Below are positions 5,147-18,912 of a stretch of 64,000 nucleotides of DNA, piece after piece. Position 1 is the first letter of the stretch. The number at the start of each line of letters is the position of its first letter. Origin of the DNA: Halomonas sp. H10-9-1 (GTDB lineage Bacteria; Pseudomonadota; Gammaproteobacteria; Pseudomonadales; Halomonadaceae). Location of the stretch: NCBI RefSeq assembly GCF_040147005.1, contig NZ_JAMSHO010000001.1:1984001-2048000 (forward strand), read 5' to 3'. Below the pieces are notes generated by a model. That model saw only the letters and a list, made by a program, of their open reading frames with translations. It ran no database searches and was not told the origin of the DNA. The position numbers and the translations under genes were made by a program.

Positions 5147-8100
5147 TTACACCACCGGCGCAAACAGCAGCGCCAGGTCTTCCTCGTCGAACAGTGGGCC
5201 GTCGCTCCTTTGCTCGGCCCCACCTTCGAGGATAGAGGCGGCGAGGTCGGCCTTGCGTGCCTGCAGGTCGAGGATGCGCTCCTCCACGGTGCCGGCGCAG
5301 ACCAGCTTGTAGACGAACACCGGATTCTGCTGGCCCATGCGGTGGGCGCGGCCGGTGGCCTGGGCCTCCACCGCGGGGTTCCACCAGGGGTCGTAGTGGA
5401 TCACGGTATCGGCGGCGGTCAGGTTGAGGCCGGTGCCGCCGGCCTTGAGGCTGATCAGGAACACAGGGATCTCGCCCTGCTGGAACAGCGCCACCCGTTG
5501 GGTACGGGTCTTGCCCGGGGTATCGCCGGTCAGGGTGGTGAAGGGAATGCCGTCCTTCTCGAGGGCGTCACCGATCAGCGCCAGCATCTCGGTGAACTGG
5601 GAGAAGATCAGGATCCGCCTGCCCTCCTCCACCAGCGGCGGCACCAGCTCGCGCAGCTGATCGAGCTTGGCCGAGCGCTTCGCCTTGCGTGCGCTGTCCA
5701 GCTTGACCAGCCGCGGGTCGCAGCACACCTGGCGCAGCTTGAGCAGCGCATCGAGCATGACGATACCGGAGGCGGCCAGACCGCGCTCGGCGACCGCCTG
5801 CTGCACCCGCTGGTGCTGGGCCAGACGCAGGCTCTCGTAGAGCTCGCGCTGGGCACCGCTCAGGGTGACCTCGCGACGGGTTTCGGTCATCTCCGGCAGC
5901 TCGGCCAGCACCTGCTGCTTGGTGCGGCGCAGCATCAGCGGGGCGATGCGCCGGGAGAGACGCTGACGTAGCTCGACATCGCTCTCCTTCTCGATGGGGG
6001 TGCGGAAGCGCTGTCCAAACCATTGCTGGCTGCCCAAGGCGCCCGGGGCCACGGCATCGAGCTGAGCCCACAGCTCGCCCAGGTGGTTCTCCAGGGGCGT
6101 GCCGGTCATGGCGATGGCGCGCTGGGCGTTAAGCTCGCGCACCGCGCGGGCGGTCTGGCTGGCGGCGTTCTTGATCGCCTGGGCTTCGTCGAGCACCAGC
6201 AGGCCAAAATCATGTGCGCGCAGGCGCTCGAGATCGCGGATCAGCAGCGCATAGGTGGTCACCGCCAGGTCGGCGCCGGGCAGCGCTTCCTCGAACTGTC
6301 GCTCGCGCTGGGCACGGCCGCCCTGCAGGGCCACCACCTTGAGCTCGGGGGCGAAGCGCTCGGCCTCCGCACACCAGTTGCCCACCAGGCTGGTGGGCGC
6401 CACCACCAGGGTCGGGCGGGTCAACGCGCCGCGGGCGCGCTCGTCGAGCACATGCGCCAGCACCTGCACCGTTTTGCCCAGGCCCATGTCGTCGGCCAGT
6501 ATCCCACCGGTGCTTAGCTCCGAAAGGAAGCGCAGCCAGGCGAGGCCGCGCGCCTGGTAGTCGCGCAGCTCGCCGGTAAAGCCGGGTGGCGCCGGCAGGC
6601 GGGCGGGCAGCTCGCGCAGGCGCCGGGCCAGGGCGGTGACGTCCTCGCGCCCTGCCCAGCGCTCGTGTTCGGCGAGTGGGGCCACCTTCTCGGCGGCGGT
6701 GAGCGGCAGGCGTACGGCCGCCTCGTCATCTTTCTCGTCGCCCAGCCAGTCGAGGATCGGCGCCATCAGCGCGCGCAGCCGGGCAAGGGGCATCACCAGG
6801 CGGCGGTTCTCCGGCAGGCTCAAGGTCCAGCTGGCGTCGTCGGCCTCGCCCTCGGCGGGCTCCAGCGGGAAGGCGGGATCCCGGAACAGCCGGCGCAGGA
6901 TCGGCAGCAGGTTAAGGCGCTCGCCCTCCACCTCGATATCCAGCGCCAGGTCGAACCAGCCGTTGCCGGCCGGCTCAAGCTCGCCGACCCAGTCGTCGGG
7001 TTCGACGACGGTGGGTTCCTCGGGGAAGTCATCGCTGAAGTCGACCACACAGCCGGCCTCCCGCAGCTTGGCGATCATCTCCCACCACTCGTCAGGCCCG
7101 GCCAGATGGGTCGGCCACTCATTGGCACTGCGCGGCGGCGTGCCTTCGCGCGGCAGCAGCAGCGTCCATTCGGGCAGATCGAGATGCGCCGGCACGGCAT
7201 CGATCTGCTGCAGGCGCTCCAGGGTCACCATGCCGGGCGGCAGGGTGCGCACCAGGGCCAGCTCCGCCTCGCGGTCGCGCTTCACGGTAAGGTGCTGGCC
7301 GTCGCGGAAGGCCTGGTGGGAGTCGCTTTCCTCCGGTGGCACCTCGATGCCGGCGTAGTCGAAGCCCACCACGGCGGCGCCCACCTCGATCCAGTGCGGC
7401 ACCATGGCGCCGTCCCGGTAGCCCAGTTGCCCGGTGGCGACTTGCAGGGTGGCCTTGAGGCGGGGCGTCACCCCTTCCAGGGTGCGCTCCTCGACTTCCT
7501 GGGGGGCCGGCAGCCGCCTGGAAAGGCCCGGGACCCGATGCAGACGCTCAGTCAGCCATCCGCTCATCTCCGGGGGCAGCGGCGGGGCTTGGCGCAGGCA
7601 CATCAGCAGGTCGGGGTCACCTTCCAGTCGCCCGATGCGACCGCGCCGCTCATCGAGATAGCACAGCTCGGTGCCGGCGCGCACAATCACCGCCTCAGCG
7701 GAGATGACGTCCAATGGATCGGTGTCGGCGCGCAGGTGCTGATAGCCCTCGGCGTCAGGCTCCCAAGCCAGGGTCAGCCGACAACTGGGGCCGGGGTCGA
7801 GCATGGTGCCGGTCTGCTTGGGATGGAACAGCAGCGGCGGAGTATCGCTCTCCAGCAGCGACCACAGGGCGCGCGCCTGGAAGGCGTGGGTAACACGGCT
7901 CCAGCGCTGCTCATTGGCTCCCACATACTGCCGCCGCTGCTCGCCCAGCATAAGCAGCTCCAGCGCCTCTTCCTCATCCGCTGCCAGTCCGTGAGGCGGC
8001 CTGGGGGTGAGCCCGCCACCGATGCGGACCATGATGGGTCGCGGCTTGACCCAGCCGTTGCCGCGGCTGCGCTGTTTGGCGGGGCGCAGCCACACCGGCG

Positions 8101-8617
8101 ACACCTGCAGGGTGGGGGCACGCGGGTCAGGGTCAACGTCGAGGAACAGCGCCAGGCGATAGTCACTCTCCAGTTCCTCGACGTAACGCCTGCCGCCAAG
8201 TGGCGTCTGGAGCTCGGCAAGCCAGGACTCCCAGCGCTGCTCCAGCAGCGCCGTGTCGTCACGTGGCGGAATGCCATCGGCCTCCAGGTCATCGATGAAG
8301 CTCTGGATCACCGCCACCGCATGCTTGCACTGGCGTCCCACCGGGCAGCTGCAGTCGCTGACCACCCCCATGCTGTGGTCATCAGGATCCACCGCGAGAC
8401 TGGTGAGGTAGCGCCTGTGACCGCTGCCCTCCACCTGGGCCCGCAGCACCAGCATCTCTCGTTCTCGCTCGAGTCGGATTCCGTGACGCACCTTGCCCTG
8501 CCGCGCATAGCCACGCCCACGGGTCAGCGAGCGTGGATCGAAGCTGCGCTGCCAGGGGATATCCTCCAGGGTGTGGTAGAGCGTCAGGGCGGGGGCGGCG
8601 AGATAGGGGTCCGGCAC
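5147..8617 (-). CDS. SNF2-family DEAD/DEAH helicase with N-terminal SWIM zinc finger
   Basis: This is a 1,156-residue ATP-dependent DNA translocase of the Swi2/Snf2 (Rad54-like) class. A SWIM-type zinc site (C89, C91, C97, H99 in SDCSCPVGRQCKHA) lies in the N-terminal part. It is followed by a long middle region without recognised motifs (about residues 120-650). The helicase core has Walker A DDMGLGKT near residue 705, the DEAQ box near 809, and motif VI region GRAHRMGQQ near 1,092. Such proteins remodel protein-DNA complexes and are common both as chromosomal genes and next to defence systems. The neighbours (BREX, Fic, DUF4236, toxin-antitoxin) suggest a defence-island setting, but a direct role is not shown. 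Confidence 0.9.
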   Translation of the reverse strand: MPDPYLAAPALTLYHTLEDIPWQRSFDPRSLTRGRGYARQGKVRHGIRLEREREMLVLRAQVEGSGHRRYLTSLAVDPDDHSMGVVSDCSCPVGRQCKHAVAVIQSFIDDLEADGIPPRDDTALLEQRWESWLAELQTPLGGRRYVEELESDYRLALFLDVDPDPRAPTLQVSPVWLRPAKQRSRGNGWVKPRPIMVRIGGGLTPRPPHGLAADEEEALELLMLGEQRRQYVGANEQRWSRVTHAFQARALWSLLESDTPPLLFHPKQTGTMLDPGPSCRLTLAWEPDAEGYQHLRADTDPLDVISAEAVIVRAGTELCYLDERRGRIGRLEGDPDLLMCLRQAPPLPPEMSGWLTERLHRVPGLSRRLPAPQEVEERTLEGVTPRLKATLQVATGQLGYRDGAMVPHWIEVGAAVVGFDYAGIEVPPEESDSHQAFRDGQHLTVKRDREAELALVRTLPPGMVTLERLQQIDAVPAHLDLPEWTLLLPREGTPPRSANEWPTHLAGPDEWWEMIAKLREAGCVVDFSDDFPEEPTVVEPDDWVGELEPAGNGWFDLALDIEVEGERLNLLPILRRLFRDPAFPLEPAEGEADDASWTLSLPENRRLVMPLARLRALMAPILDWLGDEKDDEAAVRLPLTAAEKVAPLAEHERWAGREDVTALARRLRELPARLPAPPGFTGELRDYQARGLAWLRFLSELSTGGILADDMGLGKTVQVLAHVLDERARGALTRPTLVVAPTSLVGNWCAEAERFAPELKVVALQGGRAQRERQFEEALPGADLAVTTYALLIRDLERLRAHDFGLLVLDEAQAIKNAASQTARAVRELNAQRAIAMTGTPLENHLGELWAQLDAVAPGALGSQQWFGQRFRTPIEKESDVELRQRLSRRIAPLMLRRTKQQVLAELPEMTETRREVTLSGAQRELYESLRLAQHQRVQQAVAERGLAASGIVMLDALLKLRQVCCDPRLVKLDSARKAKRSAKLDQLRELVPPLVEEGRRILIFSQFTEMLALIGDALEKDGIPFTTLTGDTPGKTRTQRVALFQQGEIPVFLISLKAGGTGLNLTAADTVIHYDPWWNPAVEAQATGRAHRMGQQNPVFVYKLVCAGTVEERILDLQARKADLAASILEGGAEQRSDGPLFDEEDLALLFAPVV

Positions 8618-10070: not shown

Positions 10071-10472
10071 ATGCCGGATATCGACATCTTGCTCGAGGCC
10101 CTCGCCGACATGGCCAGACGCGAGCCCAGCATCGCCGTGCTGTGGCTCTACGGCTCCCACGCCAAGGACACGGCGACCGCCCAGAGCGACATCGACCTGG
10201 CCGTGGCCTTCCGCGACTTCGAGCAGGATCCGCTGGAGCGGCGCCTGCGGCCCGAGCTGCTGGCTCAGGCCTGGCAGGATGCCCTGGGGCTGGAGGCGGA
10301 GCGCCTCTCCATCGTCGATATCAACCTGGCTCCCCTGCCACTGGCCCATGCCGTGATCCGTACCGGAAGGGTGTTGCAGACCAACGACCGCCTGCGCCTG
10401 GCCCGCGAGGAAAACCGCATCACTTCGATGTGGGAGCTGGATCACCTCTACCATCAGCAGCAATTCGCCTGA
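10071..10472 (+). CDS. mntA: MntA-type nucleotidyltransferase antitoxin of a type VII TA pair
   Basis: This is a minimal nucleotidyltransferase of 133 residues. The signature GSX10DXD is complete: G28-S29, then ten residues, then D40 and D42. In the characterised Shewanella pair, MntA neutralises HepT by adding AMP units to a HepT tyrosine. It is followed after 31 bases by the hepT homologue in the same direction, which is the standard pairing. The ATG at 10071 is preceded by a purine-rich stretch (CAAGGGATCC). Divergent transcription from the DUF4236 gene leaves a 134-base control region. Confidence 0.9.
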   Translation: MPDIDILLEALADMARREPSIAVLWLYGSHAKDTATAQSDIDLAVAFRDFEQDPLERRLRPELLAQAWQDALGLEAERLSIVDINLAPLPLAHAVIRTGRVLQTNDRLRLAREENRITSMWELDHLYHQQQFA

Positions 10473-10503
10473 CGCCTCAGGTACCGACCACAGGACCCCC
10501 GCG

Positions 10504-10908
10504 ATGGACCCCGAATACATCGATGCCATGGGCGAGCACCTGGCGACGCTTGCCGAAGAGCTGGAGCAGCTACATGAGGCGTCCACGATGGCGAACGGTC
10601 TCAACGCCCTGCTCTACCGCGCCGCCGAACGCAACCTGCAGCTGCTGACGGAGGCCTGCATCGGTATCGCCAAGCAGCGCCTCAAGTCGCAGGGCTGCGT
10701 TGTTCCGAGCGATGCCCGCAAGGCGTTCGACAAGCTGCGCGAACAGGGACTCGATGCCAGCGACGTCCCCTGGAACAAGGTGATCGGGCTGCGCAATGCG
10801 CTGGTGCACGACTACCTCAACCTCGATGCCGCGATCGTCGAGTCCATCATCCACCAGCGAGAGTATCGCCGGCTGCTCGACTTCGCCAAGGTTCAGCTCC
10901 GCGCCTGA
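10504..10908 (+). CDS. hepT: HepT-like RNase toxin of a type VII TA pair
   Basis: This is a HEPN-domain toxin of 134 residues. The catalytic motif RX4HXY is complete: R97, H102, Y104 in RNALVHDY. In the characterised system this RNase is silenced when MntA adds AMPs to the motif tyrosine, which has the same number (104) in Shewanella HepT. A coiled start region (residues 8-28) and helices typical of HEPN dimers are seen. It is downstream of mntA in one operon. Its last 16 bases overlap the end of the convergent rmuC gene, so the two messages would be complementary at their 3' ends. Confidence 0.9.
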   Translation: MDPEYIDAMGEHLATLAEELEQLHEASTMANGLNALLYRAAERNLQLLTEACIGIAKQRLKSQGCVVPSDARKAFDKLREQGLDASDVPWNKVIGLRNALVHDYLNLDAAIVESIIHQREYRRLLDFAKVQLRA

Positions 10909-12347
10909 TCGTCGCTCCGCTCATCACCCGACGTGGCGGTGCCCACCTCGAGCCGGGCGCGCTCCAGCACCTCGGCAGGCAGCTCCTTCTTTACCGCCAC
11001 GCCCAGTTCGCGGAACTCGCTGGCCTGCTTGACCAGGTTGCCACGGCCGTTGACCAGCTGCCCCAGCGCCCGGCCGTAGCTCTCCCGGGCGCCGTCGAGC
11101 TTGCGCCCCACGTCCTGCATGCTGTCGAGGAAGGTGGCGAGCTTGCTGTGGAAGCGCTCGGCCTTGCGGGCCAGCTCGGCGCTGTGGCGGCTCTGGTTCT
11201 CGAAACGCCACAGCTGGCCGACGATATTCAGGCTGGTGAGCAGCGTGGTGGGAGTGGCTACCAGCACGTTGCGCTCGATGGCGCGCTGGTAGAGGGTGGC
11301 GTCGTGGCGCAGCGCCTCGATATAGGCCGACTCCACCGGGATGAACATGATCACCACCTCCGGCGAGTTGAGCCCCGGCAGGTCGTAGTAGTGCTTGTCG
11401 GCCAGCTCCTCGATGCGCTCGCCCACCGCCCGGGCATGGGCGGCCAGTGCCCGCTGGCGGGTCGGCTCGTCCTCGGCGTTGACGTACTCAAGATAGGCGG
11501 CAAGCGAGGTCTTGGCGTCGATCACCAGGTGGCGCCCCTCGGGCAGGTAGACCAGCGCATCGGGGCGACGCTTGCCCGCCTCGGTGGTGAAGCTCTTCTC
11601 GCGCTGGTAGTCCTCGCCGGGGCGCAGGCCGGCGCTATCGAGCACGTTCTCCAGCATCAGCTCGCCCCAGTTGCCCTGGACCTTCTTCTGCCCCTTGAGC
11701 GCCTCGGTCAGCTGGGCGGCCTGGTCGGTGATATCGCGATTGAGCTGCTGCAGGTGCTTGAGCTCGGTGGTCAGGCTGGCGCGCTGGGCGGTCTCCTGGT
11801 GGTGGAGGGTCTCGACCTTCTCGCGGAAGCCCTTGATCTCCTCCTGGAAGGGCTTGAGCAGCCCCTGCAGGTTGCGCTCGGAGAGCGACGAGAAGGCCCT
11901 GCCCTTCTGCTCCAGCAGCTCGTTGGCGAGGTTCTCGAACTCCACCTTGAGCTGACCCTTGCTCTCCTCCATCCACTGAAGCTGGCGGGCGAAGTGCGCC
12001 TCCTTCTCTTCCAGGCGGGTGGTCAGCTCGCCATGGGTCTGCTTGAGCGCATAGTAGGCCTCGCGCAGGCGCTGCATCTCGTGGGCCTGCTCGCGGTTCG
12101 CCTCGCGCTGTGTCTCCACCTCGCCTTCGGCCACCTGCAGCGCCACCGTCTGCTCGCGGGCCTCCAGCTGCTGGGCATGCAGCTCGCCACGCATGGCCTC
12201 CCGCTCGCGGCGTGCGTTGCTCAGGCGACGTTGCTGGAGGGCGAAGGCGATCACGAGGCCCGCTGCGAAGGTGGCCAGCCCCAGGATCAGCTGGGTCGTG
12301 TCGAGTGTCTGCAGGAGTTCCACGGTGGCGTCTTCCGGTTGGGGCAT
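10893..12347 (-). CDS. rmuC: DNA recombination protein RmuC
   Basis: RmuC limits recombination at inverted repeats and carries a PD-(D/E)XK-like nuclease fold by family annotation. It has 484 residues: an N-terminal membrane segment (LILGLATFAAGLVIAFAL), a long coiled coil (about residues 30-190), and the RmuC core with the conserved VIDAKTSLAAYLEYV and EVVIMFIPVESAYIEAL. The open frame reaches 60 bases further upstream, but the ATG at 12345-12347 is preferred. It overlaps the stop codon of the TOPRIM gene by one base (TGATG), implying translational coupling. Coupling to the SMC-type operon suggests that RmuC is co-expressed with that complex. Confidence 0.93.
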   Translation of the reverse strand: MPQPEDATVELLQTLDTTQLILGLATFAAGLVIAFALQQRRLSNARREREAMRGELHAQQLEAREQTVALQVAEGEVETQREANREQAHEMQRLREAYYALKQTHGELTTRLEEKEAHFARQLQWMEESKGQLKVEFENLANELLEQKGRAFSSLSERNLQGLLKPFQEEIKGFREKVETLHHQETAQRASLTTELKHLQQLNRDITDQAAQLTEALKGQKKVQGNWGELMLENVLDSAGLRPGEDYQREKSFTTEAGKRRPDALVYLPEGRHLVIDAKTSLAAYLEYVNAEDEPTRQRALAAHARAVGERIEELADKHYYDLPGLNSPEVVIMFIPVESAYIEALRHDATLYQRAIERNVLVATPTTLLTSLNIVGQLWRFENQSRHSAELARKAERFHSKLATFLDSMQDVGRKLDGARESYGRALGQLVNGRGNLVKQASEFRELGVAVKKELPAEVLERARLEVGTATSGDERSDDQARS

Positions 12348-13237
12348 CAGGGAGTCGGGCGGGGGTGCAGCGGCACCGCGACCCAGTCGTCGGCGCTGCC
12401 GAACCACTGCTGCAGCAGGCCGCGCTGCTCACCGAGCAGGATGGCGAGATAGCGAACCAGCGGATGCTCCTCGGGCAGTCGCGTAGCATGCTGGCGCAGC
12501 GCCGCCTGGTAGCGCTGTTGCTCAGGGGGCAGCTGCTGGGCATTGGCACGCTCGGCCACCAACTCAAGGGGTGGCAACAGCTGGTGGCTGGCACCGCGCT
12601 CCAGGGCAATGCTCACCCCCTTGGCATCGAAGTCGCCCAGGTAGAGGTGCGGCCGACCGCTGGCGGCCCAGTCGGTGGCCAGGTCGGTGAAGCCGCCGCC
12701 ATAGAAGCTATCGCCGCGGTAGAGCACCAGCGGGCGCGGCCAGGGCGAGAGTGCCGGCAGCGTGTCGGGCAAGCCGTAGAAGCTGTCGAGGTTCTCGACC
12801 TGCACCAGGGCGTCGAAGGCGGCGAGGTCGAGATCGCGACGATCGAGATCGAGGCAGTCGTGCGCCCGGCAAGCGACCCCGGGACGGCTCACCGCCGGCA
12901 GGCTGGCCAGCACCCGCCGCTCGCGCGGCTTCTCGCGCACGCCCTTCGCCTCACGGTTGCCGAGCTCCGCCTGCTCGGCGGTGGAGAGGCCGGAGAGCCT
13001 GGCGGCGATGGCGGGCTCGCCCAGGGCGTCCAGGGCCTCGTCGATGCGGTCCAGCAGCTCACGGTCAAGCACCAGGCGGGCATGGGTGAGGCGCGCACCG
13101 AGTTCGATATCGTGCGCCTGGCACCAGGCCACAATCTGGTCGACCGCCCTGCCCCGGCGTTTCTCCACCACGGGCTCGCAGCGGAGCCTTTCGGCGGCAT
13201 CGCGAAGCAGGTTGCGGGCGCTTGTGGTCAGGTGCAA
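12347..13237 (-). CDS. TOPRIM nuclease-like protein, JetD/MksG-like (DUF7281-type)
   Basis: This is a 296-residue protein placed like the DNA-cleaving subunit of a Wadjet/MksBEFG complex. The TOPRIM pattern is readable: E148-N149 in LVQVENLDSFYGL, then D202 and D204 in YLGDFDAKG. These resemble the VEN and WGDxDxHG motifs of JetD. In Wadjet, the TOPRIM subunit nicks or cuts circular plasmid DNA held by the SMC motor. The N-terminal 140 residues are mostly helical and may include a DNA-binding part. At 296 residues it is shorter than typical JetD (about 380-400). It is separated by 112 bases of REP-like sequence from the kleisin gene and overlaps rmuC by one base. Family-level identity is strong by context and motif; plasmid cleavage is inferred. 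Confidence 0.72.
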   Translation of the reverse strand: MHLTTSARNLLRDAAERLRCEPVVEKRRGRAVDQIVAWCQAHDIELGARLTHARLVLDRELLDRIDEALDALGEPAIAARLSGLSTAEQAELGNREAKGVREKPRERRVLASLPAVSRPGVACRAHDCLDLDRRDLDLAAFDALVQVENLDSFYGLPDTLPALSPWPRPLVLYRGDSFYGGGFTDLATDWAASGRPHLYLGDFDAKGVSIALERGASHQLLPPLELVAERANAQQLPPEQQRYQAALRQHATRLPEEHPLVRYLAILLGEQRGLLQQWFGSADDWVAVPLHPRPTP

Positions 13238-13257
13238 GGGGGTCTCCTCCTATATCG

Positions 13258-13333
13258 GGCGCCTGCGGCGCCATCGCGCAGGATCTGCGCTCCTACAGTC
13301 AGGCCTTCCGCCTGTGGGAGCCCGATTTATCGG
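13258..13333. repeat. REP-like cluster of three hairpins inside the SMC operon
   Basis: Three perfect short inverted repeats follow one another in the 112-base gap between the kleisin and TOPRIM genes. They are GGCGCC-TGC-GGCGCC at 13258-13272, GCGCAG-GAT-CTGCGC at 13276-13290, and CCGAT-TT-ATCGG at 13322-13333. On the minus strand the text reads GGGCTCCCACAGGCGG then TGTAGGAGCGCAGATC, which looks like extragenic palindromes of Pseudomonas and Halomonas. It may stabilise or attenuate the message between the SMC genes and TOPRIM-rmuC. Confidence 0.7.
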
Positions 13334-13349
13334 CGATCAAGTCCGTCCG

Positions 13350-14585
13350 TCAGGCAAGCTGCAGGGTGACGTCGTGGATCAGCCGGACATGATTGTAGCG
13401 GCTCGCCTGGCTCTCCTGCTGGCTGAGGCGGAAGGCGCGCTGCTCGCTTCTGGGTAGCCCCTGGAATTCGGCGATCACCTGGAACAGCCAGATCTCCTCG
13501 CTCCACTCGTACTCCCCCTGCTGCAGGAACTCCAGGGCGCTGAGCCCCTCGCCGCCGTCCACCACCGCCAGATAGAAGCGCTCCACGTCCTCCTTGAGGG
13601 CCTGCTGGCGAGCGGCCACGAGGGTGTCCTCCTGAGGCGCGGCGGCCCCCGCGGCGGTCACCGGTTGCGGGCGCGGAGCGGGCCGCGGCAGGCGGTGCAG
13701 CAGTTCGCCGAGCACACGGCTATCGGGGTGGTGGTCCAGGGCGGCGGCACCGGCGGCGACCAGCGGGGCGGCGCGGTTGACCAGTGCCGGCACCTCGCCG
13801 CGCCGGGCGTAGTTGCCGGGCACGAAGCCGGGGTGCTCACGCAGGAAGCCGGCCATGCCGGCCACCAGGCGGCTGCGCGACTGCTGCTGGCGGAAGCGCG
13901 CCATCAGCTCGACCAGGCGCCGCTGTACCTCGCGCAGGCTGGTGTAGTGCTGGGTAAGCTGCTGCTGCAGGCCGCTGACCAGCAGCTTGCGCAGGGCGCC
14001 GTCGCTGCCCACCAGCTCGATCAGCTCGTCGAAGTCGATCAGCGCCAGGCCGTCGAGCAGGCGCACGATCTGCTTCTGGGCGCGCTGGTTCTCGCGGATC
14101 TTGTCGCCCAGGCGGCTGACGAAGCCGAAATCGCCGTTAAGGCGTCGCCACAGGCTGTCGATGGCATCGGCGAAGCGGCCATTGAGATCATCCACCTCCT
14201 GGCGCAGGTGCAGCAGCTGCTGTTCCTGGCGCCAGTACTCACCGCCGTCGCGGACCTCGCGGTAGCTCTGCACCAGGCTGCGCAACAGCTCCAGGGTCTC
14301 GGCCACATCGGCGTTGACGTGGCGGCGGCTCTCGTCGGCGAGCATCTCGGCGATCAACTCGCGCACCTTGGGTGTGAGCTTCACCCCGCCCTGCTCATCC
14401 GGCCGCCACAGGATGCGTGCCGCCAGCAGCCGGTTGAGGGCGGTGGTGCTCAGCCCCTCCAGCGGCACCTCGTCCCGGGCGTAGCCCGCCATCAGCGCCT
14501 CGGCGTGCTTGCCCAAAAGCGCCAGGCGCTCGACCCCGGTGCTGACCAGGCGGCTCTCCAGGGCGTGGGGATGGTCGACACTCAC
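13350..14585 (-). CDS. Kleisin-like subunit, MksF/JetA-like
   Basis: This is a 411-residue, mostly helical protein in the place of the kleisin that bridges the SMC heads in MukBEF/MksBEF and Wadjet complexes. It starts with a winged-helix-like N-terminus (GLSTTALNRLLAARILWRP, about residues 40-60). Long helices rich in R, Q and L follow (residues 110-240), then an alanine/proline linker (about 290-320) and a C-terminal helical part. The GTG start at 14583-14585 overlaps the stop of the preceding gene (GTGA), so the pair is coupled. Assignment rests on the operon order and general architecture rather than on a catalytic motif. Confidence 0.7.
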   Translation of the reverse strand: MSVDHPHALESRLVSTGVERLALLGKHAEALMAGYARDEVPLEGLSTTALNRLLAARILWRPDEQGGVKLTPKVRELIAEMLADESRRHVNADVAETLELLRSLVQSYREVRDGGEYWRQEQQLLHLRQEVDDLNGRFADAIDSLWRRLNGDFGFVSRLGDKIRENQRAQKQIVRLLDGLALIDFDELIELVGSDGALRKLLVSGLQQQLTQHYTSLREVQRRLVELMARFRQQQSRSRLVAGMAGFLREHPGFVPGNYARRGEVPALVNRAAPLVAAGAAALDHHPDSRVLGELLHRLPRPAPRPQPVTAAGAAAPQEDTLVAARQQALKEDVERFYLAVVDGGEGLSALEFLQQGEYEWSEEIWLFQVIAEFQGLPRSEQRAFRLSQQESQASRYNHVRLIHDVTLQLA

Positions 14586-15238
14586 AGCAGGCTCTCCTGG
14601 CCGCTCGGCGCCTGGTCATCCACCGGCAGGTTCTCCTCGTCGCGGATGAAGCGCGCCAGGTCGATGAGGTAGTCGATCTTGGCGGTGACCAGGTAGTACT
14701 GGCGGTCGGCATGGGGCTGGAGCAGGTAGCCGTGCTCCTTGAGCCGCTTGAACACCTGCTTGAGCTGGGCGTCGAGCTGGTCGCTCTGGGAGCCGAAGAA
14801 GGGGTCGCTGGCCAGGCGCTCGAGACGCTCGCGCAGCCCCTGGTTGTCCTCGCAACGCGAGCTGAAGTCGGCGGGCTTGAGCACCTCTCCGGGCGCGGCC
14901 GGCCCGTCGCGCCCCAGCGCCTCCTGGACCAGCTGCAGCCACTCCAGCAGCGGCAGCAGGCTCGCCACGGTCTCGCCCAGCTGCCGCGACAGCTGCTCCC
15001 GGGCAGCCTCATCGAGCACACGCCAAGCCAGGAAATAGACGCTGCCCTCGTCGTTGCTGGCCAGGCGGCGGTTGAGCGGGCGCAGGTAGGCGTCGATCCG
15101 CTCGCGGGTCTCATCGTCCTGCAGGCGGCGAAAGGCGCCCTCGTCGCTCACCGCGCAGATGAACTCGCCGGCCAGCAGGCGCTCCAGCAGAGGACCGAAC
15201 TCCACCATGGAACGCTCCATCGGGGTATGTTCACTCAT
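14582..15238 (-). CDS. Condensin accessory subunit, MksE/JetB-like
   Basis: This is a 218-residue protein of the size and position of the KITE subunit (MukE/MksE/JetB), which binds kleisin and DNA in bacterial SMC complexes. The N-terminus (FGPLLERLLAGEFICAVSDE) and the central LKEHGYLLQPHADRQYYLVT fit a tandem winged-helix fold. It overlaps the SMC gene by ATGA at its start and the kleisin gene by GTGA at its end. Both overlaps indicate stoichiometric co-translation. Confidence 0.72.
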   Translation of the reverse strand: MSEHTPMERSMVEFGPLLERLLAGEFICAVSDEGAFRRLQDDETRERIDAYLRPLNRRLASNDEGSVYFLAWRVLDEAAREQLSRQLGETVASLLPLLEWLQLVQEALGRDGPAAPGEVLKPADFSSRCEDNQGLRERLERLASDPFFGSQSDQLDAQLKQVFKRLKEHGYLLQPHADRQYYLVTAKIDYLIDLARFIRDEENLPVDDQAPSGQESLL

Positions 15239-18200
15239 GATGCCGCCTCCTCGGCGCGGGCCTGCAGGCGCTGGGCCAGGCGGCTCAGGCGCGGCTCGAT
15301 GCGCTTGAGACGGCGCTTGGCTGGGGCGGCCTCGTCACGGTCGATCAGGTAGCGATTGTGGAACAGCAGCAGCACGTCCGACTCCGGATTGGGGAAGGCG
15401 CCGACGATATGGATGCGGTTGTTGTCACAGGCGTCGAACAGCTTCTCGACGTTGTGGTAGGCCAGGGTGCCGATCTCGTCGATGGGCCAGTGGATGGCGA
15501 TCTCGGCCGGGCCACGCAGCAGTCGGGTGAAGGCGAGAAGGAACTTGCACAGGATCAGGTAGGCCATGCCGTGGCTGGAGGACTCCAGCAACTGGCGGTC
15601 GTTGCGGATCACCAGGTCGGTGCCGCCCTCGTTGAGGTGCAGCTCCAGGCGCAGCAGGCTCTCGAAGCTGTACTGCTGGTCGCTGCGCAGCAGCTCCACC
15701 ACGTCGGCCAGGGCATCCAGGTAGTCGTCGCCGGGGAGCGGCTGACCCGAGTCGCGCCACTCGCGGTAGCGCTGGGCGAAGCGCTTGAGCGGCTCCCAGA
15801 AGCCCAGCTCATCGATGGTCGACTGGATCCTCACCTCGGCGCGGCCGATGCCCTCGAGCACCAGGTCGTCGGCCACCTCGTCGGAGAGGCGCCGGCTCTG
15901 GGCGCTGATGCGCCGGTTGAGATCGCTGAATACGGTGAAGAACTTGTCGAGGTCGTCGGAGAGGTTGCGCCCCTCCTGCAGCAGCTGCTGCTGTTGCCCC
16001 TCGAGCAGCTGGAGCATGCCGGCGATCACCGGCAGCAGGCGGCGCGGGCTCTCGCCGTCGAGCCGGGCGCGTTCGGCCGCCAGGGTGGCCTGGAAGTCGG
16101 CGCTGGCTCCCTTGATCAGCTCGGACTCGAGCTTCTCGCAGCCACGGCGCAGGGCATCGAGCTCACGGGCGTGGTCGGTGAGACCCTGGCGCAGGCGCTC
16201 GATGCGCTCCTCCACATCCCCCGGTGCCTCGCCGAGGGGCTCGGGAGCCGGCTCCAGGGCCAGGGTTTCCAGCTTGGCGAGCAGCGGCGCAAGCGTCTCC
16301 ACCCGCATCCTGGCCGCGTCGCGGCGAGTGGCCAGCTCGCCCACCGCGGCCCGGTGTTCGCCCCGGGCGGCGCGGAAGTCGGCCCGATGCTGCTCGCGCT
16401 CACGCTCCAGGGCATCCCGGTCGCGGGCAAGCTCGGCCTCCTTCGCTACCAGGCGCGGCTTGCGCTCGCCCCACTCCACGCGCATGAAGCGCGCATAGGC
16501 GTCGAGCTCCTCACGGCGCGCCTCGGTGTCACGCATGCGCTTGCCCAGCGCCTCCAGGCGGGAGCGGGTGTCACGCACGGTCTCGGGGTCGACCCCCTGC
16601 GCCGCCAACTCGCGATCGAAGGCGGCGGTGAGCTCATCACGCTGGCGGCGATTCTCCGCTCGGTGGTCGTCCAGCTGGCGGCGGTACTGGGCGATCTGCT
16701 GGTCGACGCCGGCCAGCCGCCCCTGGAAGTCGGCGGCAAGCTCCAGGCGTTGGGCACGGTGGCCGTCGGCCAGCGCCTCCAGCGCCTGGCGCTGCTCGTC
16801 ACGCAGCGCCTGGTGGGCGGCCTCCTGCTCCGCCAGCGTCTGCTGAGCGCTGGCCTTGCGCGCCTGCTGGGCGACGGTGTGGCGCTGCTGGCACTGGCTG
16901 CGGGCCTGCAGGGCGTAGTCCACCTCCTCGGCGGCACGCCGGCGGGCGGCGCGCGCCCGCTCGAGGCGGGCATCGGCCTCCTGCACCTTGTGGTGGCCAC
17001 TGCGCAGCGCCTTCTCGGCGGCCGCTTCGGCCTCCTCGGCCTGGGCCAGCGCCTGCTCGGCGGCCGCGATCTCGGCCAGCAGGCTGACCTCGTCCTGGGC
17101 GTAGTCGGGCGGCGCGATGGCCGAGAGATCCAGGGCGAGCCCGAACAGGTCGTCACTGCCACCCTCGTGGCACTGGGGAGCGAGGTCGCGGCGCTCCAGC
17201 AGCTCCGGGGCGATCACCTTGCCCAGGCTCTGCTCCCAACCCGGGCGGTGATGGCGCAGGAAGTGGCGTAGGCTGCCCTGGGCGGGGTCACGCTGGATCC
17301 GCAAGTCGTCGAGGTGCCCGCGGGCACGCGACAGCTGGGTGCGGGCCAGCTCCAGGTCGCGCTCGGCCAGTCCCCGGGCCTGGCGGCACTCATCGAGCTC
17401 GCCACGCAGCGTCTCCACGCTGCCGGCGGCGGCGCTCTGTTCGCTCTGGGCCTGGTCGACCCGGGCCTGGGCCTGCTCCGCCTCGTGGATCTCCTCCGCG
17501 CTCTGGGCGGTGTGCGCCAGCTGCGCCTTGAGCTCGGCGAGCCGCACGGTCATCTGCTCCAGGCGGGCACCATAGTCGTCATCCAGGGCCTGGCGGCGAG
17601 CCTGGTAAGCGGCCTCCAGGCGCCCCTCGGCCTCGCTCTGCTGGTCGCGACAGGTCTCCTTCTCCTCCCCCAGGGCATCGATCAGCGCCTGGAGCTCGTC
17701 GCGGCGCGACTCGAGCAGGTCGCCCAGCTCCACCAGGCGCGCCTCCAGCTTGGCCTTGCTCTCCTTGACCGCTTGCTGCATCAGCTCCAGGTGATCGCGC
17801 AGCTGTTGCTGCTGCTCGCGCCACTGGGGCAGCGCCCTGAGATCCTGCTCCAGGCCCGGCATGTCGGCCGCCTCGAAGGCCTCGTACTGATGCTGCAGAT
17901 CATCGAGCACGCCGCGGGTCTGGTCGAGCTCGCTGTCGACCCGGCTGGCGCGGTCGTTGAGGGCATCACGACGCTCCTGGTAGGCCGTCTCGCGGTCCTG
18001 GAAGTCGCGCTGGCGCTGCTGGATCTCGGCCTCATGCTCGGCCTGGTCCCGCGCGGCCCGGTGGCGGTCGGCCTCCAGCTGGGGCCTGAGCTGCCATAGC
18101 GTGGCCTCGAGGTCGGCGATTGCGCGGTCCAGGCGTTCGAGCTCGGCCAGCGAGCGCTGCAGCGGCTCCAGGCGCATGGATTGGCGCATGCGGGCGATCC

Positions 18201-18912
18201 ACTCGCGCGCCTTGGTGTTGCGGATGCGGGTCACCGGCAGTTCGACGCCATCCTCCTCGAAGATCGCCGCCAGCATGGTCTTGAGGGTGTCCATCTTGCC
18301 CTCCTTGGCATGCACCGCCGAGACCAGCTTCTCCATATGCCGGATGCGCTGGCCGGGTCGCACCAGGCTGAAGCGGGCGGCCACCTGGCGCAGACGCAGT
18401 CCCTCCTTGCGGTTGCCCCTGGCCGGGCTCCCGGCCTGGGTAAAGTCGTTCTGGATCACCGCGCGATACTCCGTGGTGGCCCCCAACTTGGGCGAGACCG
18501 ACACGCCCCGCCGGCGCAGGCCGTTGGCCCACTGGGCATAGTCCAGGGCAGCCACGCCGGCCTCGCTCTCGACCAGGTAGTCCTCGGGGCGGTAGGCATC
18601 GCCGACGAAGCGGTACTCGACCCCGCCCTCGCTGCGGCGGGTCAGCACCGCCTGGCACACATCGCCCTCCTCGCGGCGATACTCGTAGACGAGGTAGCTG
18701 TTGCGATGCGGCAGGTAGAAGGCGTCGAACTTGAGGCGCGTGCGCGGCACCACCTTGTTGGGCAACTCGCCATAGAATACCGGCACCAGACGCTGCAGGG
18801 TGGTCTTCCCCGAAGCGTTGGTACCACAGATGTTGGTGTGGCCATCCACACTGAGCTCGACCACGCCCTCGAGGTGGCCGTGGATCATCACGATGCGAAG
18901 CAGCTGAGCCAT
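15235..18912 (-). CDS. SMC-like ATPase, MksB/JetC-like
   Basis: This is a 1,225-residue SMC-type motor. The N-terminal head has Walker A GTNASGKTT at residues 30-38. Two very long coiled-coil arms rich in E, R, A, L and Q flank a middle hinge region. The C-terminal head has an SSHG signature near residue 1,110 and Walker B-like HWPIDEIG near 1,143. In Wadjet and MksBEF such motors extrude DNA loops. The open frame extends 54 bases further upstream. I chose the ATG at 18910-18912 because AGGGA lies six to seven bases before it and MAQLLRIVMIHGHLEG leads straight into the head. It is first in the operon, with a 182-base divergent region to the protease gene. Confidence 0.85.
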   Translation of the reverse strand: MAQLLRIVMIHGHLEGVVELSVDGHTNICGTNASGKTTLQRLVPVFYGELPNKVVPRTRLKFDAFYLPHRNSYLVYEYRREEGDVCQAVLTRRSEGGVEYRFVGDAYRPEDYLVESEAGVAALDYAQWANGLRRRGVSVSPKLGATTEYRAVIQNDFTQAGSPARGNRKEGLRLRQVAARFSLVRPGQRIRHMEKLVSAVHAKEGKMDTLKTMLAAIFEEDGVELPVTRIRNTKAREWIARMRQSMRLEPLQRSLAELERLDRAIADLEATLWQLRPQLEADRHRAARDQAEHEAEIQQRQRDFQDRETAYQERRDALNDRASRVDSELDQTRGVLDDLQHQYEAFEAADMPGLEQDLRALPQWREQQQQLRDHLELMQQAVKESKAKLEARLVELGDLLESRRDELQALIDALGEEKETCRDQQSEAEGRLEAAYQARRQALDDDYGARLEQMTVRLAELKAQLAHTAQSAEEIHEAEQAQARVDQAQSEQSAAAGSVETLRGELDECRQARGLAERDLELARTQLSRARGHLDDLRIQRDPAQGSLRHFLRHHRPGWEQSLGKVIAPELLERRDLAPQCHEGGSDDLFGLALDLSAIAPPDYAQDEVSLLAEIAAAEQALAQAEEAEAAAEKALRSGHHKVQEADARLERARAARRRAAEEVDYALQARSQCQQRHTVAQQARKASAQQTLAEQEAAHQALRDEQRQALEALADGHRAQRLELAADFQGRLAGVDQQIAQYRRQLDDHRAENRRQRDELTAAFDRELAAQGVDPETVRDTRSRLEALGKRMRDTEARREELDAYARFMRVEWGERKPRLVAKEAELARDRDALEREREQHRADFRAARGEHRAAVGELATRRDAARMRVETLAPLLAKLETLALEPAPEPLGEAPGDVEERIERLRQGLTDHARELDALRRGCEKLESELIKGASADFQATLAAERARLDGESPRRLLPVIAGMLQLLEGQQQQLLQEGRNLSDDLDKFFTVFSDLNRRISAQSRRLSDEVADDLVLEGIGRAEVRIQSTIDELGFWEPLKRFAQRYREWRDSGQPLPGDDYLDALADVVELLRSDQQYSFESLLRLELHLNEGGTDLVIRNDRQLLESSSHGMAYLILCKFLLAFTRLLRGPAEIAIHWPIDEIGTLAYHNVEKLFDACDNNRIHIVGAFPNPESDVLLLFHNRYLIDRDEAAPAKRRLKRIEPRLSRLAQRLQARAEEAAS

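What the first reader, a model, noticed from the sequence alone, without database searches (positions are those of the whole stretch)
12347..18912. SMC / KITE / kleisin / TOPRIM operon with inverted gene order: Wadjet- or MksBEFG-like candidate
Four tightly packed genes encode an SMC-like ATPase (Walker A at residues 30-38, SSHG signature, IDE Walker B), an MksE/JetB-like protein, a kleisin-like protein and a TOPRIM protein with E148 and D202/D204. These are the parts of Wadjet, which cuts plasmids. The published jet order is A-B-C-D; here it is C-B-A-D, with ATGA and GTGA overlaps at the first two junctions. The TOPRIM protein is shorter than JetD. This may be a separate branch of condensin-based defence or a chromosomal condensin with a nuclease.
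Basis: partly seen in the sequence, partly recalled or inferred. Interest (0 to 1): 0.78.

Follow-up and report, generated by a model that had tools for sequence, protein, structure and literature searches.

The report
Condensin operon with detachable DNA cutter
These four genes encode a DNA-folding motor joined to a likely DNA-cutting enzyme, a cousin of a bacterial anti-plasmid machine; in several relatives the cutter has been deleted while the motor was kept, so the group may show how a defence machine turns into a chromosome-folding one.

Summary
Window 12347-18912 (-) encodes SMC (1225 aa), KITE (218), kleisin-like (411) and TOPRIM (296) proteins in order C-B-A-D with ATGA and GTGA overlaps. 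SMC is full-length DUF3584 (775 bits), KITE is MksE, TOPRIM is DUF7281; its AlphaFold model (pLDDT 92) matches JetD best. The order marks a branch seen in other Gammaproteobacteria and on 110-341 kb plasmids. PADLOC's Wadjet models score it weakly; the same genome also has a type I Wadjet. I found no report of three features. (1) The KITE ends in a sliding-clamp-type motif, Q-x-x-L-[L/I/F], in 79 of 79 related KITEs; 9 KITEs of other-order operons lack it. (2) The terminal TOPRIM glutamate of JetD and MksG is glutamine in this clade (65 of 65). (3) The nuclease is missing beside 10 of 76 untruncated related operons, with deletion scars at four, while the motor stays under purifying selection (dN/dS 0.03-0.07). 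Most likely: a Wadjet-like circular-DNA-cutting SMC complex whose core also has a nuclease-independent role. Cleavage, plasmid restriction and clamp binding are inferred. The host's own 5.8 kb plasmid counts against strong restriction.

The parts
15235..18912 (-). SMC ATPase, 1225 aa, DUF3584 family (JetC/MksB position); Walker A 30-37, SSHG 1112-1115, WPIDE 1142-1146
   Evidence: Pfam PF12128 774.8 bits over residues 8-1191; motifs; only DUF3584 match in the genome
14582..15238 (-). KITE, 218 aa, MksE family (JetB/MksE position)
   Evidence: Pfam PF21980 33.9 bits, cut-off 27; ATGA overlap with the SMC gene
14585..14599 (-). Codons of the KITE C-terminal motif QESLL, residues 214-218, a sliding-clamp-binding-type motif
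   Evidence: Q and L in 79 of 79 usable KITEs of the named loci, tail otherwise variable; 119 of the 120 listed database KITEs; clamp binding itself is inferred from the motif
13350..14585 (-). Kleisin-like protein, 411 aa (JetA/MksF position)
   Evidence: No Pfam hit with E under 0.01; best fold hits JetA and MukF but weak (E 6.7e-3 and 1.2e-2); position between KITE and TOPRIM genes conserved
12347..13237 (-). TOPRIM protein, likely nuclease, 296 aa, TTG start, DUF7281 family (JetD/MksG position)
12626..12796 (-). TOPRIM metal-site codons: E148 (12794-12796), D202 (12632-12634), D204 (12626-12628)
   Evidence: Invariant (17 sequences; 65 of 65)
12407..12412 (-). Codons Q276-Q277: the position where JetD, MksG and most other DUF7281 proteins seen here have Q-E
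   Evidence: Q277 65 of 65 in this clade; of 23 other DUF7281 proteins 19 have QE and 4 have QQ; 4 of 4 plasmid ones QE

Best explanation
It is a separate lineage of nuclease-armed SMC complexes that works like Wadjet. SMC dimers bridged by the kleisin and KITE load on DNA and extrude loops. On a small circle the motor runs out of DNA and stalls, and the bent DNA is passed to the TOPRIM dimer, which cuts it. Two features are specific to this lineage. The KITE tail carries a sliding-clamp-binding-type peptide, so I propose that the complex loads on freshly replicated DNA through DnaN. The core also has a nuclease-independent job, probably MksBEF-like chromosome handling, which is why the nuclease can be deleted while the motor is conserved. 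Shown here: operon architecture, SMC and TOPRIM motifs, the predicted TOPRIM fold, the conserved tail motif, the E-to-Q change, repeated nuclease loss and continued selection on the core. Inferred: loop extrusion, cleavage, size discrimination, clamp binding and the second role.
For: TOPRIM fold closest to JetD/MksG/Top6A; profile link to JetD, the host's own included, over residues 144-221 (hhalign E 6.2e-5, prob 64.7); two plasmid homologues also touch Pfam JetD_C below its cut-off of 22 (16.1 and 18.7 bits). Intact ATPase motifs. Mobile, defence-like settings: conjugative or mobilizable plasmids of 110-341 kb, one with CBASS genes close by; in the same genus a second, remote lineage of the same gene order lies beside TniQ, in one case with a Csy2-domain gene, as in Tn7-like CRISPR transposons. 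Patchy presence: close kleisin in 39 of 90 genomes of the genus. Clamp-type tail 79 of 79. Core dN/dS 0.03-0.07 in the three pairs without nuclease, and 0.02-0.09 in eight pairs with it, apart from one KITE value of 0.15 at very low dS.
Against: The host genome carries a 5,783-base contig with a plasmid replicase (170.6 bits) and a ParE toxin (67.1 bits) and a frame open across its ends: a small plasmid coexists with both this system and a type I JetABCD. In this clade the terminal glutamate implicated in JetD/MksG catalysis is Gln. The core is very conserved, whereas PMC10586767 describes conflict systems as highly divergent (passage). Ten of 76 operons have no nuclease beside them. The kleisin assignment by fold is weak. 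In this window the operon lies between rmuC and an M48 peptidase gene, not in an obvious defence island.
Confidence: 0.58

Rival explanations
1. In this clade it is mainly a chromosomal condensin, like MksBEF of Pseudomonas aeruginosa, and the TOPRIM gene is a declining or regulatory remnant of an ancestral defence system.
For: Nuclease missing in 10 of 76 untruncated named loci with scars in L110, L133, L123 and L166 and a truncated copy in L138; at least 11-12 changes of nuclease presence on the SMC tree; core dN/dS as low in nuclease-less pairs as in nuclease-bearing ones; TOPRIM evolves faster (49% mean identity where the kleisin is 73%); terminal Glu lost. [quoted passage not shown]
Against: E148, D202 and D204 are kept in 65 of 65 complete copies; TOPRIM dN/dS is 0.08-0.39 in the six of eight nuclease-bearing pairs with usable dS, so the gene is still selected; 66 of 76 operons keep it; the host has ScpA (112 bits), so presumably SMC-ScpAB, and a second condensin is not required.
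Confidence: 0.27
2. It is a defence system against phages or replicating linear or large DNA rather than small plasmids; the sliding-clamp tag directs it to active replication forks.
For: Clamp-type motif on the KITE tail; carriage by large plasmids, once close to CBASS; a small plasmid coexists in the host.
Against: No direct support for phage activity; Wadjet complexes are reported to cut circles and spare linear DNA (PMC10586767, passages read). No homologue in 50,697 phage records, which is neutral.
Confidence: 0.08
3. The E-to-Q change made the nuclease leaky or hyperactive, so it is costly and is deleted often.
For: In M. mazei topoisomerase VI the E342Q change in the TOPRIM tetrad makes the enzyme much more prone to break DNA (PMC13040014, passages and section 11 read); the same letter change occurred once here, and the nuclease losses counted lie within that clade.
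Against: That Q277 is the residue of Top6A E342 is inferred from the shared Q-E motif and spacing, not from a residue-level structural alignment. Most E-type operons in the sample were found through their DUF7281 gene, so absence of losses there is biased. Top6 cleaves through a tyrosine that JetD and MksG are reported to lack in the CAP domain (PMC10123090, PMC10586767).
Confidence: 0.07

Closest known systems
Wadjet type I JetABCD (incl. MksBEFG of Corynebacterium glutamicum, EptABCD of Mycobacterium smegmatis)
   Same: Subunits of the same kinds (kleisin by position and weak fold match); TOPRIM of JetD/Top6A type with E and DxD; short overlapping genes; patchy distribution; carriage by mobile elements
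   Different: Order C-B-A-D; SMC is DUF3584 with only weak PADLOC JetC scores; nuclease is 296 aa DUF7281 without DUF3322/JetD_C at cut-off; neither glutamate of the JetD E-Q-E motif in this clade; KITE tail with clamp-type motif; a type I JetABCD coexists in the genome
MksBEF of Pseudomonas aeruginosa PAO1 (three-gene condensin)
   Same: KITE is of the MksE family; some members of this lineage have just SMC-KITE-kleisin
   Different: Opposite gene order and longer SMC (order and size of PAO1 MksB are recalled; PMC10123090, section read, says the mksFEBG order is conserved in Pseudomonas)
Operons kleisin-KITE-SMC(~920 aa)-DUF7281 (loci L057, L061, L192 here; L058 without a confirmed kleisin frame)
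   Same: DUF7281 protein; KITE of L057 is MksE (121 bits)
   Different: Order A-B-C-D (first gene by position), short SMC, no clamp-type KITE tail
Topoisomerase VI A subunit / Spo11
   Different: No B subunit gene in the operon; terminal Glu is Gln; catalytic tyrosine of the CAP domain not assigned here

Membership tests
Wadjet types I-III (PADLOC-DB 2.0.0 models) | SMC matches JetC models | tested here: not met
   Best JetC3 24.2 bits on residues 236-522, JetC1 19.5 bits; the host's type I JetC scores 1603 bits. PADLOC shows no curated cut-off here, so 'not met' rests on this contrast
Wadjet types I-III (PADLOC-DB 2.0.0 models) | Nuclease matches JetD models; DUF3322 plus JetD_C (type I) | tested here: not met
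   JetD3 12.8 bits, E 0.014; the Pfam hit is DUF7281 only; the host's own JetD has both Pfam domains
Wadjet types I-III (PADLOC-DB 2.0.0 models) | Kleisin and KITE match JetA/JetB models | tested here: not met
   Kleisin: no hit; KITE: JetB1 15 bits, E 0.0039
Wadjet type I | Gene order jetA-B-C-D | tested here: not met
   C-B-A-D in the window and in its relatives
Wadjet-like SMC nuclease (by architecture) | SMC + KITE + kleisin + TOPRIM nuclease in one operon | tested here: inconclusive
   SMC, KITE and TOPRIM met; kleisin fold model pLDDT 73 with weak JetA/MukF matches
Wadjet-like SMC nuclease (by activity) | Cuts circular DNA, restricts plasmids | not testable with these tools
   Needs protein and cells
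MksBEF(G) | KITE of the MksE family | tested here: met
   PF21980 33.9 bits, cut-off 27; NCBI names for homologues include 'condensin complex protein MksE'
MksBEF(G) | Order mksF-E-B-G and MksG with DUF3322+DUF2220 | tested here: not met
   Order C-B-A-D; DUF7281; the definition is from PMC10123090, section read
Top6A/JetD-type TOPRIM | TOPRIM fold with E and DxD | tested here: met
   Predicted fold; residues
Top6A/JetD-type TOPRIM | Terminal conserved glutamate (JetD and MksG E-Q-E) | tested here: not met
   Gln in 65 of 65; present in 19 of 23 other DUF7281 proteins
Sliding-clamp client | QxxL[LF]-type peptide in a flexible tail | tested here: met
   79 of 79; 16 of 17 distant C-B-A-D KITEs, L054 lacks it; on plasmids 1 of 4 strictly; the consensus is recalled
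Sliding-clamp client | Binds DnaN | not testable with these tools
   No complex prediction or assay available

The most novel reading that the evidence does not exclude
A sliding-clamp-tethered SMC-nuclease lineage is being converted, repeatedly and recently, from a plasmid-cutting defence machine into a chromosome-handling condensin. A single Glu-to-Gln change in the TOPRIM metal site, the same letter change that makes topoisomerase VI over-cleave, came first; clean deletions of the nuclease followed in several genera, while the clamp-tagged motor stayed under full selection. It would be a natural, replayed version of the proposed JetABCD-to-MksBEF transition.
Probability: 0.27. Interest if true: 0.86.

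Novelty: new variant of a known kind. Interest (0 to 1): 0.66.

Why it matters
PADLOC's Wadjet models score this lineage only weakly, and its nuclease family (DUF7281) has no paper in the searched library. It adds a KITE tail that could couple an SMC motor to the replication clamp, a possible answer to how a plasmid-cutting SMC finds replicating DNA. Close pairs with and without the nuclease at the same locus (Chromohalobacter sarecensis and C. nigrandesensis, Onishia taeanensis As1101 and BH539) make the proposed origin of MksBEF condensins by loss of the nuclease directly testable.

Tried and rejected
Rejected: a peculiarity of this genome (the order recurs). Rejected: sequencing or annotation artefact (Pfam scores, conserved overlaps). 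Rejected: one common replacement effector. After the kleisin of the nuclease-less loci no single gene recurs in all: two Chromohalobacter have a short globin-like ORF, L156, L064 and L071 have 5-oxoprolinase-type genes (both named by eye), L136/L073 have an Xre-RES toxin-antitoxin pair, L110 and L133 have genes on the other strand. Rejected: rmuC as a constant fifth member (2 of 16 loci, 11 of L063-L090, 6 of 80).

Led nowhere: viral contigs scan (no relative), phage records (no match), PDB sequence searches with TOPRIM, KITE and kleisin profiles (no credible relative; the SMC profile hit coiled-coil stretches, SMC6 among them), promoter/terminator scan (none found). The kleisin model is poor and its fold hits are mixed with unrelated helical proteins. 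The best Foldseek hit to JetD has a low TM-score (0.26), as the two domains sit differently; the domain-level support is VIA's. Residue-level proof that Q277 equals Top6A E342 was not obtained; hhalign aligned only residues 144-221. DxD was not matched by my pattern in 2 of 23 distant proteins, L190 and L193, not followed up.

Limits: the named scan used one peptide pattern and kept the best 80 of 235 confirmed loci, so it is biased to close relatives; most E-type operons were found through DUF7281 itself. Absence of the nuclease was judged within the held flank (8 kb); only two of the nuclease-less genomes (G013, G025) were searched whole, with no match. The tree used 33 of the 64 complete four-gene operons, 11 loci with a missing or truncated nuclease, 21 others and the window; it is a quick tree with long branches among the distant rows. 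One TOPRIM pair gave dN/dS 0.90 at dS 0.01 and another had saturated dS 3.14. Four named loci are cut by contig ends (L103, L109, L135, L151) and were left out of the 76; fragmented L111 and truncated L138 count as nuclease-bearing in the 66 of 76. L110 and L133 have nearly the same scar, so scars at four loci need not be four events.
Full report
OBSERVATION. The junctions read ATGA and GTGA; the TOPRIM stop overlaps the rmuC start as TGATG. The SMC is full-length Pfam DUF3584 (774.8 bits), the KITE is MksE (33.9 bits, cut-off 27), the TOPRIM is DUF7281 (37.6 bits, cut-off 27) and the kleisin has no family. It is the only DUF3584 match of the genome.

A BRANCH, NOT AN ODDITY. In the genus (Halomonas in the broad sense, from the names), a kleisin at 72-100% identity is in 39 of 90 genomes and a remote one (22-23%) in six more. 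The window's TOPRIM has a match in 17 of 58 relatives, all in the genus (17 of 37, own included). The six remote ones are a second lineage with the same order SMC-KITE-kleisin-TOPRIM. Two of these operons (L067, L070) lie beside TniQ genes, one followed by a Csy2-domain gene, as in Tn7-like CRISPR transposons. In the class, DUF7281 exceeds its cut-off in 11 of 369 genomes and DUF3584 in 10 of 369, with six holding both; in the phylum sample DUF7281 does so in 12 of 398. DUF7281 also follows operons in the order kleisin-KITE-SMC(~920 aa) (L057, L061, L192, the first gene by position; L058 alike but its kleisin frame was not confirmed) and occurs in other arrangements. Operons of the window's order sit on plasmids: Marinobacter (213 kb), Enterobacter (IncC, 196 kb, SMC gene interrupted by ISSod4, CBASS genes close by), Vibrio breoganii (341 kb), V. 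campbellii (110 kb) and, by annotation and gene sizes, Acinetobacter johnsonii (129 kb). The fourth gene of the first four is DUF7281 at 80.6-150 bits; the Acinetobacter one is annotated DUF2399.

NOT WADJET TYPES I-III BY MODEL. PADLOC's JetC, JetB and JetD models give at most 24.2, 15 and 12.8 bits and the kleisin none. The same genome encodes an operon (kleisin by position)-KITE-SMC-JetD (C1:3336500-3354000, locus L207), whose last three proteins score 283 (JetB1), 1603 (JetC1) and 481 bits (JetD1). It also has ScpA (112 bits).

THE KITE TAIL. In 79 of 79 usable KITEs of the 80 named loci (L111 left out as fragmented) the last five residues are Q-x-x-L-[L/I/F]: Q at -5 in 79, L at -2 in 79, and L 74, I 4, F 1 at -1, after an acidic stretch that varies. 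Of the 120 database KITEs listed (of 437 found), 119 have it within the last ten residues. Of 17 distant KITEs of the same gene order, 16 have QxxL plus a hydrophobic residue; L054 does not. On plasmids one of four fits strictly (QQGLF); two end QGEF[DN]F and one QMRLA. Of nine KITEs from other operons (three type I JetB, six beside other DUF7281 genes, some assigned by position only), none has it. This is the shape of a bacterial sliding-clamp-binding peptide (consensus recalled, not from a call). It is kept in nuclease-less operons (one search counts them too), so it belongs to the motor. A paper search for clamp terms with MukE, MksE or Wadjet found 25 papers and listed 15; none of the listed titles or abstract starts reports such a KITE motif (listing only).

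THE TERMINAL GLUTAMATE. The host's JetD ends its TOPRIM with L-E-Q-E-R-I and MksG with I-E-Q-E-R-I, presumably the E349 and E351 that PMC10123090 names (section read). Of 23 other DUF7281 proteins 19 have x-Q-E and four (L186, L189, L190, L191) have Q-Q; four of four plasmid ones have Q-E. The window's clade has Q-Q in 65 of 65. On the SMC tree the E/Q state needs one change. In PMC13040014 (passages and section 11 read), M. mazei Top6A E342 belongs to the metal tetrad and clasps R102; E342Q makes the enzyme much more prone to break DNA. That Q277 corresponds to E342 is my inference.

THE NUCLEASE IS LOST REPEATEDLY, THE MOTOR IS KEPT. Of 80 named loci, four are cut by contig ends; of the other 76, 66 have a TOPRIM hit and ten have none within the held flank. 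On the SMC tree of 66 rows the nuclease state changes at least 11-12 times, not more clustered than shuffled labels (145 of 500 shuffles as low). The loss is in place. Chromohalobacter sarecensis and C. nigrandesensis align at 94-96% on both sides of a gap that is the TOPRIM gene, and Onishia taeanensis As1101 and BH539 at 94% next to it. Scars prove deletion: 117 bp of the gene's start in L110, 116 bp in L133, 65 bp in L123, and 51 plus 45 bp fused in L166; L138 has a truncated copy; the other six (L122, L128, L136, L156, L167, L168) show none. The SMC ATPase motifs remain: Walker A and B in all ten, and SSHG in nine (for L168 my script printed only the last SS.G match, which lies elsewhere). 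dN/dS of the three core genes is 0.03-0.07 in the three pairs in which both lack the nuclease, and 0.02-0.09 in eight nuclease-bearing pairs apart from one KITE value of 0.15; the TOPRIM gene is at 0.08-0.39 in the six pairs with usable dS. Where kleisins are 73% identical, TOPRIMs are 49% (716 pairs). In the type I Wadjet of the same genus JetD is nearly as conserved as its partners (80-81% against 82-90%, two genomes compared over all three proteins).

AGAINST A SIMPLE ANTI-PLASMID ROLE. The host's second contig, 5,783 bases, carries a plasmid replicase and a ParE toxin and has a frame open across its ends (539 codons); partial matches are to Halomonas plasmids of 4.3, 4.7 and 24 kb. So a small plasmid lives with this system and with JetABCD, as an evader or because neither is fully active.

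LITERATURE. [quoted passage not shown] DUF7281: no paper. DUF3584: five papers, none on condensins by title or abstract start (listing). The listings (some capped) showed no title on this gene order. The founding Wadjet, MksBEF and ABC-ATPase papers are not held or were not read, so an earlier mention of this lineage there cannot be excluded.

VERDICT. A real, separate lineage of nuclease-armed SMC complexes, a new variant of a known kind. Its most interesting features are the clamp-type tail, the E-to-Q change and the repeated loss of the nuclease.

Noticed in passing
window 10071-10908 (+): Nucleotidyltransferase (Polbeta, 56 bits) and HepT-like (80.5 bits) gene pair, an MNT-HEPN toxin-antitoxin type, convergent with rmuC downstream of the operon.
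   Followed up: partly
window 5147-8617 (-): SNF2-family helicase with a SWIM zinc finger; scores against PADLOC DpdE (617 bits) and ZorD (377 bits) models through its helicase part, probably family resemblance only.
   Followed up: partly
L171 (contig 2 of the window's genome): 5.8 kb plasmid with a replicase, a ParE toxin and a frame across the ends, coexisting with two SMC-nuclease systems.
   Followed up: partly
L067 12925-16241 and L070 4619-5890: Operons of the second lineage beside TniQ genes, in L067 followed by a Csy2-domain gene, suggesting carriage by a Tn7-like CRISPR transposon.
   Followed up: partly
L136 13560-14565 and L073 10855-11744 (same locus): An Xre-RES toxin-antitoxin pair sits where the nuclease is in relatives.
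   Followed up: partly
L057, L061, L192 (and L058 in part): Kleisin-KITE-SMC(~920 aa)-DUF7281 operons: possible nuclease-bearing relatives of PAO1-type MksBEF.
   Followed up: no
L064 and L105: In L064 5-oxoprolinase-type genes (named by eye) occupy the place of the nuclease of its close relative L105.
   Followed up: no
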